Below the pieces are notes generated by a model, which did not search any database, was not told where the DNA came from, and saw nothing but the letters and a program-made list of their open reading frames with translations. From positions 1 through 23,017 of the IMG/VR virus record IMGVR_UViG_3300020281_000132: DNA of 23,017 nt, one strand, 5' to 3'. The first letter of the stretch is position 1; every line of letters begins with the position of its first letter. Positions 8,909 to 19,878 of the stretch are shown one piece after another. The stretch is from a virus. The position numbers were made by a program, and so were the translations under genes.

Positions 8909-9339
8909 GTATTGCAACAACTGCATTTACTGTTATCAAACAGGGTGTTTCAGTAGGAAAAGAATTACACAGTTTATCTGGACAAATAATTAAGTTTGTC
9001 AAACAAATGAGTATTGTAGAAGAAGAACACAAAAAAGAAAAATCAAAATGGTATACATCTTCTAACGAAGAAGCTCTTGATACCTATTTTAAATTAAAAC
9101 AAGTACACGATATGGAAAATCAACTACGAGAAATTTTTATGTTATATGGAGCGCCCAATGCCTGGAGTGAATTTATTGCAATTAGAACAGATATAAAGAA
9201 AAAAAGACAAGCTGCTATAGCGAAAAAGAGAAAAGAAAGAGAGAATTTAATTATGTTATGTGCTTATGCTGCACTTGTAGTTGCTCTTATTGGTTTGGTA
9301 TCCTTATTGTTGATAAACAGTGGTTTGCTTAAAAACTAG
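8896..9339 (+). CDS. Conserved marine phage membrane protein of unknown function
   Basis: 147 aa from ATG 8896. An in-frame ATG at 8842 would add 18 residues lying wholly inside the upstream gene and without family likeness; AGGA at 8884-8887 supports 8896. The N-terminus MDPISIATTAF...GVSVGKE and the central EALDTYFKLKQVHDMENQLRE plus AWSEFIAIR blocks resemble a protein I have seen repeatedly next to structural genes in marine podoviruses. A strongly basic helix (KKKRQAAIAKKRKERE) precedes one C-terminal transmembrane segment, about residues 118-141. Two adjacent genes each with a single C-terminal membrane span could form a lysis or envelope-interaction pair. That is only a positional inference. 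Confidence 0.6.
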   Translation: MDPISIATTAFTVIKQGVSVGKELHSLSGQIIKFVKQMSIVEEEHKKEKSKWYTSSNEEALDTYFKLKQVHDMENQLREIFMLYGAPNAWSEFIAIRTDIKKKRQAAIAKKRKERENLIMLCAYAALVVALIGLVSLLLINSGLLKN

Positions 9340-9462
9340 GCAAAAACCGACCGATTTTAAGCGTCATACACGCAAACATTTAATGTCGGACGACCTTTAC
9401 TACCTACCTAAAATAGACTAATATATTCTAAGTTAACTAAAATAAACCTATAGGAGAAAATA
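9340..9462 (+). promoter_or_regulatory. Non-coding gap upstream of the basic protein gene, weak promoter candidate
   Basis: About 120 bases without a reading frame, the longest purely non-coding gap in the window. The best sigma70-like match is TTTACT (9396-9401), 17 bases, TAATAT (9419-9424), with four of six matches in each box; this is weak and could be chance. No convincing hairpin terminator is seen after the stop at 9339. A strong Shine-Dalgarno AGGAG (9452-9456) stands six bases before the ATG at 9463. The gap separates the virion module from the following genes, so a phage-specific or host promoter here would make sense. Confidence 0.3.
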
Positions 9463-9816
9463 ATGAGAAAACGTATGAAATCTAAAGGCTATGCCAAAGG
9501 CGGAGCTAAAATGATGAAAGCTATGCGTGGTAAAATGGCCAAAGGTTATGCCAAAGGCGGAGCTAAAAAAGTAATGAAAGCCATGGGTGGTCGTATGATG
9601 GCTAAAGGCTATGCCAAAGGTGGAGCTAAAAAAGTTATGAAAGCGTCAAGGGGTACAGCTAGTTTTATGAAAAGCAGTGGCAAACAAGGACAAAAAGCAA
9701 AAAACGTGGCAGACGTTACAATAGCAACATTTACTAAAACTTTAAAAGGCATGGGTGTTGGCAACAGAATTACAGCGAATGATATAAATAAAGCTAAAAG
9801 ACAGTTGCTTAAATAA
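9463..9816 (+). CDS. Very basic Lys/Gly/Ala repeat protein
   Basis: 117 aa containing 26 Lys, 7 Arg, only 2 Asp and no Glu, so net charge is about +31. The first half consists of three copies of AKGYAKGGAK(K)VMKA-type repeats spaced 19 and 21 residues. The second half is a more ordinary short domain (VADVTIATFTKTLKG...ITANDINKAKRQLLK). The composition resembles histone H1-like or transition-protein tails, so nucleic-acid binding or condensation inside the capsid is plausible. Similar KGYAKGG proteins are, from memory, frequent in marine podoviruses near virion genes, with unknown function. The start is fixed by AGGAG six bases upstream. The gene stands alone between a non-coding gap and a hairpin-controlled gene. 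Confidence 0.65.
   Translation: MRKRMKSKGYAKGGAKMMKAMRGKMAKGYAKGGAKKVMKAMGGRMMAKGYAKGGAKKVMKASRGTASFMKSSGKQGQKAKNVADVTIATFTKTLKGMGVGNRITANDINKAKRQLLK
9484..9644 (+). repeat. Three in-frame tandem repeats in the basic protein gene
   Basis: Near-identical DNA copies begin at 9484, 9541 and 9604 with the core AAAGGCTATGCCAAAGGC, differing by single bases (for example GGT for GGC). The spacings are 57 and 63 bases, both multiples of three. The high DNA identity points to recent duplication or ongoing recombination within the gene. Confidence 0.8.
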
Positions 9817-9847
9817 ATAACTTGCCATCTGGTATTTAACATTTATG

Positions 9848-9884
9848 ATAGGGTATGGCTTATTTGATAAGTAACATACCCTAT
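9848..9884 (+). promoter_or_regulatory. RNA hairpin covering the ribosome binding site and start codon of the 9855 gene
   Basis: ATAGGGTATG (9848-9857) pairs perfectly with CATACCCTAT (9875-9884), ten base pairs. Inside, CTTAT (9859-9863) pairs with ATAAG (9867-9871) around a TTG loop, separated from the outer stem by 1 and 3 unpaired bases. The outer stem includes GGG (the only Shine-Dalgarno-like bases) and the whole ATG at 9855-9857. In the mRNA this would hide the start site, so translation should depend on a melting signal, RNase or RNA-binding protein. Three T residues at 9885-9887 follow the stem's terminal T, so a weak terminator is the alternative reading. Confidence 0.6.
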
Positions 9885-10532
9885 TTTAAAGTATGGGTAA
9901 GAAAAGAATTTACACACAATCACAGAAAATATCAGGGTGAATATATTCACGCTCTTGTTTGTTCTGTTACTAGTATCCCTGATAGATGTCTAAGTTTTCA
10001 GGTCATTTTCACAGGCTGTGAAGACGAAGAAAATAGACTTGAAAATCCTCATGGTGGAGCTATGTGGGCAAGAATGCCTATTACTGCTCTTGTGGCGGAT
10101 GAGCCTCTTGATACATATCCTCCCCCTATACAGACTCATCTGGCACAACCATGGGATTGTTCAGCACGAAACTTTGAGGTGATTAAACTTGACAGAACAT
10201 CGTCAAGTCCGTGGCTTTGTAAAATAGATGGAGAGTTTTATACAGGAAAATATATTTTTACTGTTGACTATACCGGATCAGAAATTGCAGATGATCCAGC
10301 ACAACATAAACAATCACATGTTATAAGACTTACAAGTGGACCATGGAATGGGTGCATTGTTGCTTTACCAAATAACAGAGTCAGAGTAACTTCTCCAGCT
10401 ATGTGGGTTACAGGTAAAGGTGCTCCGGATTTTGTACCAAGTCAATGGACACATAGTGCAGAAGAGCATGACAGCTATATGGATTGGGAAACAACATTCA
10501 ATAATCTATATGCAGATTCAAAGAAAAAATAA
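9855..10532 (+). CDS. Conserved marine podovirus protein of unknown function
   Basis: 225 aa. I recognise the family from marine T7-like phages by its N-terminus (MAYLISNIPYFKVWVRKEF, THNH), a GGAMWARMPITALVAD block, HLAQPWDCS, FTVDYTGSEIADDPAQHKQSHVI and PNNRVRVTSPAMW. Its function is unknown to me. Strong conservation and position between virion and replication modules suggest a virion component, perhaps tail or head decoration, but nothing enzymatic is evident. The start matches the family N-terminus even though the only SD-like GGG is one base before ATG and both are buried in a hairpin (9848-9884). Its 3' end overlaps the exonuclease gene by 23 bases. Confidence 0.65.
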   Translation: MAYLISNIPYFKVWVRKEFTHNHRKYQGEYIHALVCSVTSIPDRCLSFQVIFTGCEDEENRLENPHGGAMWARMPITALVADEPLDTYPPPIQTHLAQPWDCSARNFEVIKLDRTSSSPWLCKIDGEFYTGKYIFTVDYTGSEIADDPAQHKQSHVIRLTSGPWNGCIVALPNNRVRVTSPAMWVTGKGAPDFVPSQWTHSAEEHDSYMDWETTFNNLYADSKKK

Positions 10533-11241
10533 TTCATTTGAGGTAAATGGTTTTGTAATTAATAAAAAATATAATTACAATGAATTTAGTAGAAACGATG
10601 AAGAGACGGGTAGAACCTATAATGTTGGTGAGAACAAAGTACCATCTGTCACAACAATCTTATCAAAAACGCAGAGCGAAGAAAAAAGAAAATCATTAGA
10701 TGCATGGAGAGAACGTGTAGGTTATCAAGAAGCTGCACGGATCACGAACCAAGCTGCCAGAAGAGGCACAGAAATGCATTATGTTTTAGAACAATATTTA
10801 CAAGGTATTGGTTATTTAAATTTATCTAAAGATGGTGCGCTACCAAGAATGATGGCTCACACAATTGTTGATAATCTTGACCATTTTAGTCAGGTATACG
10901 GCACTGAGGTTAGTTTATCGTACAAGGACCAATGGGCAGGGTCTTCTGATCTTATTGGTGTATATGATAACAAACCAACAATTATAGATTTCAAACAAGC
11001 AAATAAACCGAAAAGAGAAGAATGGATTGAAGATTATTATTATCAAATAGCTGCTTATGCTCTGGCACATAAATTAAATTTTGGTCCAATCACACAAGGA
11101 CTAATATGTGTTTGCACAAAAGACCTTGTATATCAACAATTTAAAATGAATGAAGATAATATAAAAGAGTATGAAGATAAATGGTTTGCAAGAGTAGAAA
11201 AATTTTATAAATATTCTAAAACTTCTTCGCCTAAAGTTTGA
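10510..11241 (+). CDS. PD-(D/E)XK exonuclease, RecB/Cas4-like
   Basis: 243 aa from ATG 10510. A longer in-frame start at 10420 would run 90 bases further into the previous gene and adds no family sequence. Visible motifs are RGTEMH with His90, GSSDLIG with Asp147, TIIDFKQ with Asp160 and Lys162, and QIAAYALA with Gln179 and Tyr183. Together these form the RecB-family H...D...DxK...QxxxY nuclease signature. It probably acts as the phage 5'-3' exonuclease for host DNA degradation, primer removal or recombination, the job of T7 gp6, although the fold differs. It heads the replication module and is the last plus gene before the minus-strand helicase, with which its 3' end overlaps by 37 bases in convergent orientation. 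Confidence 0.8.
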   Translation: MQIQRKNNSFEVNGFVINKKYNYNEFSRNDEETGRTYNVGENKVPSVTTILSKTQSEEKRKSLDAWRERVGYQEAARITNQAARRGTEMHYVLEQYLQGIGYLNLSKDGALPRMMAHTIVDNLDHFSQVYGTEVSLSYKDQWAGSSDLIGVYDNKPTIIDFKQANKPKREEWIEDYYYQIAAYALAHKLNFGPITQGLICVCTKDLVYQQFKMNEDNIKEYEDKWFARVEKFYKYSKTSSPKV

Positions 11242-12611
11242 GCACTTATTTTAAGTTTTTTATTAAGAGCTTTTAAAATAAACTCATCAATAGTTCCTCT
11301 AGCAAGTATGTCAATATATGTTACTTTATTTTCTTGACCTATTCTATGTGCTCTATCTTCAGACTGTTGACGCACCTCTAAATCATAACTATTACTAAAA
11401 TAAATTACAGTATTTGCTTTTGTAAGATTTAAACCATAACCACCAGTTGTTGGATTACCGACAAAAAATCTACATTGTGGATCTTTTTCAAATCGTCTTA
11501 CACCTTCTTTTCTATCCTCTACTTTAATAGCTCCATAAACAGAAACTGTAGACTCGTCACCAAATTTTATTTTTAATTCATTTATAATTTTAGTAATGGA
11601 ATTAAGGTAGTTTGCCCAAATTATTACTTTACCATCCAATTCATCAATAATACTAAAAAGTTCTTTCATTTTTACATTTTCTAAATCTGTGGTTACCCCT
11701 GTGTCACTGACCATAAAACCACAACATACTTGATGTAATTTTAATATTTCAGTCAACTTGTTAGTGTAAGAGGCTTCTTTGTCTTGAATAATTGCTCTCG
11801 CAAACATTTTAAGTTGCGCGTATGCTTTTTGTTGATCACCCGTAAGTTCTACATATCTTTTTTCATAAACCTTATCTGGCAAATCTAGACAATCTTGTTT
11901 TTTTACTCTATATGAAAACATTTTTAATTTTTGTTCTAACTCATCTAGATTAGTAAAGTATAAAGGTAAGGCAAATTGTCTACCCGTGTTACCTAAACTT
12001 ATTGATTTCATTATACAATATCGTGATCTAAAAGCATAATAATTTGTTATACCTAATAATTCAGGATGTAAAAAACCACATTGACTAAATAAATCTAGTG
12101 GGGATTTTGTAACAGGTGATCCTGTAAGAATTCTTTTATAAGCTATTGGTTTACAAATTTTTGTTAGTTCTTTTGTTCTTTTTGCCTGTCTATTTTTTAT
12201 AGTTGTTGCTTCATCTAATATGATCATCATGGTATCATGATACTCATTAATAATATCCTCAACCGCCTTGGAACCAGACTTACGAGAAAATGCTTCTACA
12301 TTTATTAAAAAGAATGTTAATTTTGTTGATTGTCTTACAAATTTTTTGTCTAATTTATGGGTGTGAATGGTTGTGTCAACAGGACAGTGAGTGTTTATTT
12401 CGTCCTTCCAATTACGATAAACCGAGTTTGGAGCCACTACCAAAACGACATTAATCTTTTCTTGTTGATATAAGTAGGCAGCATTGTCAATTGAAACTTT
12501 TGTTTTACCCGTTCCCATTTCCATAAAATAAGCATAATTTTTTTTATCAGCACCGGCTATAAGAGCTTGTCTCTGATGCTCGTAGGGTTGTGTCTTGTAT
12601 TCATATCCCAT
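11205..12611 (-). CDS. SNF2-type superfamily 2 helicase/ATPase
   Basis: 468 aa on the minus strand. Helicase motifs in order: EMGTGKT Walker A (Lys36), APNSVYRNW (Ia region), LDEATTIKN Walker B (Asp133-Glu134), TGSPVTKSP (motif III), GGYGLNLTKANTVIYF (motif V) and QQSEDRAHRIGQ (motif VI, residues 415-426), typical of the SNF2/Rad54 group. These ATPases translocate on double-stranded DNA and remodel protein-DNA or branched structures. In a phage, roles in recombination, fork restart or host chromatin stripping are possible. No extra nuclease or DNA-binding domain is seen. There is no Shine-Dalgarno before ATG 12611, and a strong promoter ends so close that the mRNA leader would be about five bases. 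It is one of only two minus-strand genes in the window. Confidence 0.9.
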   Translation of the reverse strand: MGYEYKTQPYEHQRQALIAGADKKNYAYFMEMGTGKTKVSIDNAAYLYQQEKINVVLVVAPNSVYRNWKDEINTHCPVDTTIHTHKLDKKFVRQSTKLTFFLINVEAFSRKSGSKAVEDIINEYHDTMMIILDEATTIKNRQAKRTKELTKICKPIAYKRILTGSPVTKSPLDLFSQCGFLHPELLGITNYYAFRSRYCIMKSISLGNTGRQFALPLYFTNLDELEQKLKMFSYRVKKQDCLDLPDKVYEKRYVELTGDQQKAYAQLKMFARAIIQDKEASYTNKLTEILKLHQVCCGFMVSDTGVTTDLENVKMKELFSIIDELDGKVIIWANYLNSITKIINELKIKFGDESTVSVYGAIKVEDRKEGVRRFEKDPQCRFFVGNPTTGGYGLNLTKANTVIYFSNSYDLEVRQQSEDRAHRIGQENKVTYIDILARGTIDEFILKALNKKLKISAQTLGEEVLEYL

Positions 12612-12622
12612 AATATTATAAC

Positions 12623-12651
12623 TTTATATAAAATAAATCTTGACAAGTCAA
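12623..12651 (-). promoter_or_regulatory. Sigma70-like promoter for the minus-strand helicase
   Basis: On the minus strand TTGACT (12651-12646) is followed by exactly 17 bases and TATAAA (12628-12623), five of six matches in each box at optimal spacing. The predicted start near 12616 leaves about a 5-base leader before ATG 12611, so the transcript would be nearly leaderless. Its -35 region is interlocked with that of the plus-strand promoter. Confidence 0.6.
12640..12651. repeat. TTGAC-AA-GTCAA inverted repeat shared by both promoters
   Basis: TTGACAAGTCAA is a perfect 5-base inverted repeat around an AA centre. Each arm supplies five bases of a -35 hexamer, pointing in opposite directions. 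It could be simply two adjoining -35 boxes, or also an operator for a dimeric regulator; the sequence alone cannot tell these apart. Confidence 0.6.
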
Positions 12652-12668
12652 TGAATAAATTTTACAAA
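12640..12668 (+). promoter_or_regulatory. Sigma70-like promoter for the replication genes from 12689
   Basis: The perfect -35 box TTGACA (12640-12645) is followed by 17 bases and TACAAA (12663-12668), four of six matches to the -10 consensus. The predicted transcript start is near 12675, just before the Shine-Dalgarno at 12677-12684. This would serve the 181-aa protein and, through coupling, the SSB candidate, primase, helicase and polymerase genes. Confidence 0.45.
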
Positions 12669-12676
12669 GAAAAATG

Positions 12677-19585: not shown

Positions 19586-19614
19586 TTGACCTATACTAAA
19601 TAGTTGTGTATAGT
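19586..19614 (+). promoter_or_regulatory. Sigma70-like promoter for the 19621 gene cluster
   Basis: TTGACC (19586-19591), 17 bases, TATAGT (19609-19614): five of six matches in each box at ideal spacing. The predicted transcript start falls at about 19620-19621, that is, on the ATG of the 85-aa gene, implying a leaderless mRNA. It lies back to back with the minus-strand promoter, six bases between the two -35 boxes, which form the inverted pair GTCAA-N6-TTGAC. Confidence 0.6.
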
Positions 19615-19620
19615 TGGGAT

Positions 19621-19878
19621 ATGAAAGCAAATATAAAATCAAAAAAAGTTAAAGTATTTTTAGAAAAAATTGAAAACATACTTATGAATGTTCCAACTAC
19701 AGATTTTGGAGGAAATCCATTAGATGAATCTGAACTAAGTGCTTATGCAACAAAATTAAAGTCGGTAAAATATACTTGTCCTGACACAGAACGAGAATAT
19801 ACTAATATCTTTAACACCGATTTGGCTATGTCTTTCGTAAAATCAGAACACGCAGCCAAATTGGGTGAAGATGTATAA
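19621..19878 (+). CDS. Small protein of unknown function, first gene of accessory operon (85 aa)
   Basis: 85 aa from ATG 19621. A GTG at 19606 is in frame but lies upstream of the -10 box at 19609-19614 and so cannot be on that transcript. The N-terminus is lysine-rich (MKANIKSKKVKVFLEKIENI) and helical, followed by a short loop with DFGGNPLDESELSAYATKLK. One cysteine is present; no membrane segment or known motif is seen. I do not recognise the family. The ATG coincides with the predicted transcript start and has no good Shine-Dalgarno, so it is probably translated leaderless. Eight bases overlap the PP-loop enzyme gene, suggesting coupled synthesis and possibly a partner role. Confidence 0.6.
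   Translation: MKANIKSKKVKVFLEKIENILMNVPTTDFGGNPLDESELSAYATKLKSVKYTCPDTEREYTNIFNTDLAMSFVKSEHAAKLGEDV

What the first reader, a model, noticed from the sequence alone, without database searches (positions are those of the whole stretch)
9848..9884. Strong hairpin sequesters ribosome binding site and start codon
A perfect 10-bp stem plus a nested 5-bp stem encloses GGG and the AUG of a conserved virion-like gene, and lies directly between this gene and the basic repeat protein gene. In an AT-rich genome such pairing is unlikely by chance. It could delay or limit translation, or respond to a protein, temperature or RNA processing. Since the right arm encodes Ile-Pro-Tyr, selection on RNA and protein would overlap.
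Basis: seen in the sequence. Interest (0 to 1): 0.6.

Follow-up and report, generated by a model that had tools for sequence, protein, structure and literature searches.

The report
Phage promoter nested in start-codon hairpin
In a family of viruses that infect abundant ocean bacteria, one gene's start signal is folded shut in RNA that runs in from the neighbouring gene but left open in RNA made from the gene's own promoter, so the gene should be read only from its own message.

Summary
The hairpin is real (-20.3 kcal/mol, z -5.3, 0/200 shuffles). The predicted transcript is therefore leaderless (starts at or next to AUG), and the GGG is promoter discriminator, not a Shine-Dalgarno site. Of 180 distinct homologues, 64 keep this promoter at that spacing (0.4 expected); all 64 use ATG. 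In those 64 (18 clusters) read-through RNA folds over the start far more than protein- and promoter-preserving shuffles (Fisher p 4e-15). The arms covary, match better within than across lineages (p 5e-5), and are rebuilt in at least four different pairings. Opening the start costs about 10 kcal/mol in read-through RNA but about 1 in the leaderless RNA, whose left arm is not transcribed. Homologues lacking the promoter show no excess start-codon sequestration. Best reading: a T4 gene e / I-TevI-like switch that silences the gene on read-through messages and permits translation only from its own leaderless mRNA. A terminator is unlikely. The start site and the translational block are inferred, not measured.

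The parts
9463..9816 (+). upstream gene: basic KGYAKGG-repeat protein with its own Shine-Dalgarno; source of read-through RNA
   Evidence: AGGAG upstream of its ATG; a basic Lys-rich, usually KGYAKGG-repeat protein sits at this place in most promoter-type relatives, stop 29-43 nt before the ATG in 63/64; no terminator match between 9339 and 9855 on + strand
9822..9827 (+). -35 box TTGCCA
   Evidence: consensus scan, 10/12 with the -10; TTG with 16- or 17-nt spacer in 64 distinct relatives
9844..9849 (+). -10 box TATGAT
   Evidence: TANNNT ends exactly 5 nt before the start codon in 64 of 180 homologues, 0.4 expected
9850..9854 (+). discriminator AGGGT (the 'GGG' of the finding); part of the left hairpin arm; not an SD site
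   Evidence: position between the -10 box and the ATG; SD-like 4-mer in 0/64 relatives
9855..9855 (+). predicted transcription start (A of ATG, +/-1 nt), giving a leaderless mRNA
   Evidence: inference from -10 to TSS spacing; all 64 use ATG, versus 71/116 in homologues without the promoter
9848..9857 (+). left arm of outer stem (overlaps end of -10, discriminator, ATG); only its last 3 nt are in the gene's own transcript
9875..9884 (+). right arm of outer stem, codons 7-10 (Asn-Ile-Pro-Tyr)
   Evidence: covariation with left arm
9859..9871 (+). nested 5-bp stem CTTAT/ATAAG with UUG loop
   Evidence: poorly conserved among relatives
9855..10532 (+). regulated gene, 225 aa, PHROG 3704 (called 'PurM' or 'ferredoxin' in phage records; function unknown)
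10510..11241 (+). downstream exonuclease gene (PHROG 298), likely start at in-frame ATG 10510, overlapping the regulated gene by 23 nt and so possibly coupled to it
   Evidence: for the family; start chosen by reading the sequence, inference

Best explanation
A two-message switch. A sigma70-type promoter (TTGCCA-16-TATGAT) fills the 38-nt gap behind the basic repeat-protein gene and starts transcription at or next to the A of the ATG (inferred). RNA from this promoter is leaderless: it has only 3 nt of the left arm, so the AUG is free at the 5' end and can be bound directly by ribosomes. RNA that runs in from upstream virion genes contains the whole left arm, which pairs with codons 7-10 and buries the AUG, and there is no SD site to help; that message should not make this protein (and perhaps not the overlapping exonuclease). 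The result is that expression depends on the gene's own promoter and is uncoupled from read-through. Shown here: the hairpin, the promoter-like motif and its fixed spacing, selection for the structure in read-through RNA only, and its absence in promoter-less homologues. Inferred: the start site, that read-through occurs, and the translational block.
For: Promoter: 64 of 180 distinct homologues have TTG-(16/17)-TANNNT ending exactly 5 nt before the start (0.4 expected); start codon ATG in 64/64 versus 71/116 without it (p 7e-11) and no SD-like 4-mer. Leaderless mRNAs in Sinorhizobium all begin with AUG (PMC3616915). The intergenic gap is 29-43 nt in 63/64 and is just the promoter. Structure: in 18 clusters, with protein, -35, -10 and discriminator held fixed, mean z -2.6 (MFE) and +2.3 (cost of opening the start), Fisher p 4e-15 and 2.5e-11. 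Opening costs a median 10.0 kcal/mol in read-through RNA and 1.2 in leaderless RNA; leaderless RNA shows no excess structure (z -0.33, p 0.30); homologues without the promoter show no excess sequestration (z 0.10). Native arm combinations beat swapped ones, 10.1 versus 7.7 kcal/mol, p 5e-5. Covariation score 0.190 versus 0.138 +/- 0.008 in shuffles and 0.034-0.139 when slid; 28 double-change cells, reached by 0/500 shuffles. Pairing is rebuilt in at least four ways, including upstream-only partners. Related phage HTVC027P has no RNA polymerase gene and relies on the host's (PMC12753301).
Against: No transcript or ribosome data exist for this phage. The clusters are related, so the Fisher p values overstate the evidence. 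In several of the 18 clusters (for example 9, 12, 15 and 16) the opening cost is not above the null, and in cluster 15 the ATG sits in a loop. Two further relatives with the promoter one nt further away use GTG, so the ATG rule is not absolute. Leaderless translation has not been shown in SAR11 in the papers I could search.
Confidence: 0.72

Rival explanations
1. Promoter only: the conserved feature is a leaderless sigma70 promoter; the hairpin is a by-product of a G-rich discriminator plus ATG facing the conserved codons Asn-Ile-Pro-Tyr and has no role.
For: The promoter is the most constant element; part of the pairing (ATG with CAT, GG with CC) follows from fixed sequence; 3 of 10 pairs never vary.
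Against: Excess structure remains when promoter elements and protein are held fixed; swap test p 5e-5; compensatory changes; other lineages pair the start with quite different sequence.
Confidence: 0.17
2. Intrinsic terminator that stops read-through from the upstream gene just at the new promoter.
For: A strong stem with three G-C pairs in a row, followed by TTTTAAAG, at the end of a gene; the own transcript would escape it.
Against: Not found by the terminator scan. In 18 clusters no helix is followed by at least 5 T in 8 nt, and in several the helix is followed by ACTAGCAA, AAAGTATG or TACTTAAC.
Confidence: 0.05
3. DNA operator: the inverted repeat across the start site is bound by a dimeric regulator of the promoter.
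For: A 16-nt imperfect inverted repeat spans the -10 box to +36.
Against: Arm sequence, register and spacing change between lineages; G-T combinations, which pair only in RNA, are common (24 of 54 at one pair).
Confidence: 0.04
4. RNA thermometer or ligand/protein-responsive element in the gene's own mRNA.
For: Start codon sequestration is the classic arrangement.
Against: The own mRNA lacks the left arm; the stem is about fully formed at 10-37 C; no Rfam match.
Confidence: 0.02

Closest known systems
Bacteriophage T4 gene e (lysozyme), soc, 49, I-TevI and segB; phage Aeh1 mobE: late promoter inside an inhibitory hairpin (PMC3014915, PMC2988022)
   Same: A helix hides the start region in longer transcripts from upstream; a promoter placed in the 5' arm makes shorter transcripts that lack that arm and are translated.
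   Different: Here the short RNA is predicted leaderless with no SD; the promoter is host sigma70-like rather than a T4 late promoter; the gene, phage group and host are unrelated; timing is unknown and may be the reverse (read-through from virion genes); pairing partners differ between lineages.
Leaderless mRNAs, e.g. 171 in Sinorhizobium meliloti (PMC3616915) and phage lambda cI from PRM (own knowledge)
   Same: -10 box about 5-6 nt before ATG, no SD, ATG start.
   Different: The known cases are not described as paired with a hairpin that silences read-through RNA; here the start site is not mapped.
Pelagibacter phages HTVC023P and HTVC027P (closest cultured relatives)
   Same: DNA polymerase 72% and 48% identical, helicase 56% and 44% identical; both carry the PHROG 3704 gene.
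   Different: Their copies of this gene sit in other contexts; HTVC023P has a GGAG about 15 nt upstream and no such promoter.

Membership tests
T4 gene e-type promoter-in-hairpin translational switch | start codon and/or SD sequestered in an RNA helix on upstream-initiated transcripts | tested here: met
   Opening cost median 10.0 kcal/mol; z +2.3 over 18 clusters, by computed folding
T4 gene e-type promoter-in-hairpin translational switch | promoter located so that its own transcript lacks the 5' arm | tested here: met
   Promoter motif with -10 box overlapping the left arm and fixed 5-nt spacing in 64 relatives; by sequence only, start site not mapped
T4 gene e-type promoter-in-hairpin translational switch | transcripts actually read in from upstream | not testable with these tools
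   No terminator match in 9339-9855 on the + strand and no room for one, but no RNA data
T4 gene e-type promoter-in-hairpin translational switch | measured drop in translation from the long RNA | not testable with these tools
   needs a reporter or ribosome profiling
T4 gene e-type promoter-in-hairpin translational switch | T4-type late promoter (TATAAATA) | tested here: not met
   The promoter is TTGCCA-16-TATGAT, sigma70-like; so it works like, but is not a member of, the T4 set
Leaderless mRNA | -10 box about 5-7 nt before the start codon, no SD, AUG start | tested here: met
   d = 5 in 64 relatives, ATG 64/64, SD 0/64; two further relatives at d = 6 have GTG
Leaderless mRNA | 5' end mapped at the AUG | not testable with these tools
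   no RNA data
Intrinsic terminator | stem followed by a U-rich tract | tested here: not met
   no hit in the scan; no cluster has at least 5 T in the next 8 nt

The most novel reading that the evidence does not exclude
Pelagiphages use a general regulatory device, a leaderless sigma70 promoter nested in a start-codon hairpin, that makes translation depend on which promoter made the RNA. It works without any Shine-Dalgarno site and evolves by rebuilding the pairing in new registers. A second gene (ATG at 19621 in the window, 85 aa) may use it too: relatives have a -10 box 6 nt before ATG and an ATCCTA/TAGGAT hairpin.
Probability: 0.35. Interest if true: 0.72.

Novelty: new variant of a known kind. 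Interest (0 to 1): 0.58.

Why it matters
If true, the T4 trick of hiding a gene in long transcripts and freeing it from its own promoter has an unrelated counterpart in viruses of SAR11, some of the most abundant bacteria in the sea, in a form where the freed message has no leader at all. It predicts which genes of these phages are insulated from read-through, gives a simple test for leaderless translation in SAR11 infection, and offers a compact design in which one sequence is promoter, insulator and coding region.

Tried and rejected
Terminator: rejected as a conserved function. DNA operator: arms and registers not conserved. Thermometer: stem formed at all marine temperatures. Known RNA family or tRNA: none. 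Downstream hairpin in the leaderless RNA (right arm re-pairing with GTATGGGT): seen in the window, but no excess structure across relatives. First degenerate pattern scan failed because of one N too many, repeated correctly. An early count of promoter-type loci used a wrong -35 window and was redone. Structure prediction of the 225-aa protein was poor (mean pLDDT 65), with no PDB match at E <= 0.001, so function stays open; the 'PurM' and 'ferredoxin' names have no support from Pfam or NCBIfam here.

Full report
OBSERVATION. The hairpin is there as described. Arms 9848-9857 and 9875-9884 pair perfectly and a nested 5-bp stem closes the loop. The MFE of 9835-9895 is -20.3 kcal/mol, z -5.28, with none of 200 shuffles as stable. 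It persists in a 738-nt context with probability 0.98. By energy alone it is in the top 0.09% of windows but not the strongest in the 23-kb window; its position over a start codon is what matters.

The 38 nt between the stop of the basic repeat-protein gene (9816) and the ATG (9855) hold TTGCCA (9822-9827), a 16-nt spacer and TATGAT (9844-9849), 10/12 to the sigma70 consensus. The -10 box ends 5 nt before the ATG, so transcription should begin at or next to the A of ATG (inference from the usual spacing). The GGG is then part of the discriminator and is too close to AUG to be a Shine-Dalgarno site.

RELATIVES. Four protein-based scans of IMG/VR and two DNA-pattern scans gave 180 distinct start regions of this gene. 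In 64 the same promoter occurs with the -10 box ending exactly 5 nt before the start; shuffled upstream sequence predicts 0.4, and no other spacing between 0 and 11 nt has more than 3. All 64 start with ATG and none has an SD-like 4-mer at -18..-4. Among the other 116, 71 use ATG, 25 GTG and 19 TTG, and 21 have an SD-like 4-mer (Fisher p 7e-11 for ATG). Some sequences were fetched with a pattern that contains ATG, but the protein-based set alone gave 62 such promoters, all ATG (whose list also holds one unrelated TANNNT match, L049). In 63 of 64 the upstream stop lies 29-43 nt before the ATG, so the gap is just the promoter. In homologues without the promoter the two genes overlap or lie within 10 nt in 92 of 114. 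So two configurations exist: genes abutting or overlapping and probably translated from one message, or separated by a leaderless promoter. Three more relatives have the promoter at 6 nt; two of these use GTG.

IS THE HAIRPIN SELECTED? I clustered the 64 at 85% identity (18 clusters) and compared each -40..+45 RNA with 300 shuffles that keep the -35, -10, discriminator, ATG and encoded protein, and randomise spacer and synonymous codons. Mean z is -2.6 for MFE and +2.3 for the cost of opening -3..+6; Fisher p 4e-15 and 2.5e-11. These p values treat related clusters as independent and are too small. Three controls bear on the reading. First, the leaderless RNA (+1..+60) of the same genes has no excess structure (z -0.33, p 0.30), and its start costs 1.2 kcal/mol to open against 10.0 in read-through RNA. 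Second, in 66 clusters of homologues without the promoter the start is no more buried than expected (z 0.10), although overall MFE is slightly low (z -0.67). Third, swapping upstream and coding halves among the 18 clusters lowers the opening cost from 10.1 to 7.7 (p 5e-5), so the halves are matched within lineages.

COVARIATION. On an ungapped alignment of 54 distinct sequences the window's stem is paired in 90.6% of cells. Its covariation score is 0.190 (shuffles 0.138 +/- 0.008; slid versions 0.034-0.139), with 28 cells changed on both sides, more than any of 500 shuffles, although the number of pairs with any double change (3) is not exceptional. Clear cases are -4/+27 (G-C in 24, A-U in 17) and -5/+28 (A-U, G-U, G-C). 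In 10 of 18 clusters the start pairs with codons 7-10 as in the window, in two with codons 9-11, in one with codons 2-4, and in three with the promoter spacer upstream. One is mixed, and in one the ATG is left in the loop. Different lineages therefore close the same site with different partners.

MECHANISM. The left arm, or the upstream partner, always lies in the promoter and so is missing from the gene's own RNA. Read-through RNA is closed and own-promoter RNA is open. Ribosomes ending at 9816 would not reach the stem at 9847 (a terminating ribosome covers roughly 12 nt downstream; own knowledge). The mechanism is the one shown for T4 gene e, where longer early transcripts form an inhibitory structure that cuts synthesis about 100-fold and late transcripts lack its 5' part, and for I-TevI and other T4-related genes (PMC3014915, PMC2988022). 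The differences here are a sigma70-like promoter, a predicted leaderless product and an unrelated gene and phage. I therefore say it works like the T4 switch and is not a member of that set.

WHERE IT IS. The window is a 23-kb virus fragment whose DNA polymerase is 72% identical to that of Pelagibacter phage HTVC023P. HTVC027P of the same group encodes no RNA polymerase and relies on the host's (PMC12753301), which fits a sigma70-like promoter. The regulated protein is PHROG 3704; its function is unknown and a structure prediction was too poor to help.

ALTERNATIVES. A terminator fails: no U tract in any of the 18 clusters. An operator fails on changing arms. A thermometer fails because the stem is formed at 10-37 C. 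The main rival is that only the promoter matters and the hairpin is a by-product; the fixed-element shuffles, swap test and covariation argue against it, but only a reporter assay can close it.

LIMITS. No RNA or protein data exist for this phage; start site, read-through and repression are inferred. The clusters share ancestry. I searched only open-access papers for prior reports and found none for pelagiphages.

Noticed in passing
19586-19621 (+): A second leaderless-type promoter: TTGACC-17-TATAGT, then 6 nt to ATG 19621 of an 85-aa ORF (the ORF list starts it at GTG 19606). Three relatives keep the 6-nt spacing; two of them (L332, L344) also have an ATCCTA/TAGGAT hairpin before the ATG.
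   Followed up: partly
12611-12674: Divergent promoter region between the helicase (minus strand) and the 12674 gene; helicase genes of four relatives have a -10 box 6-7 nt before ATG, so they may be leaderless too, without strong hairpins.
   Followed up: partly
9855-10532: Homologues in cyanophages and pelagiphages are annotated PurM or ferredoxin, and a paper counts purM in 45% of HTVC023P-type genomes (PMC9599517). Neither Pfam nor NCBIfam supports these names for this protein.
   Followed up: partly
9463-9816: Upstream basic protein made of KGYAKGG-type repeats: very variable in length and repeat number between relatives but present at this place in most of both configurations.
   Followed up: no
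10510-11241: The exonuclease ORF is listed from GTG 10420, but the in-frame ATG 10510 overlaps the end of the 9855 gene by 23 nt and is a likelier start, suggesting translational coupling.
   Followed up: no
18651 and 14076: Hairpins more stable than the one in question, inside the DNA polymerase gene and near the start of the 14038 gene.
   Followed up: no
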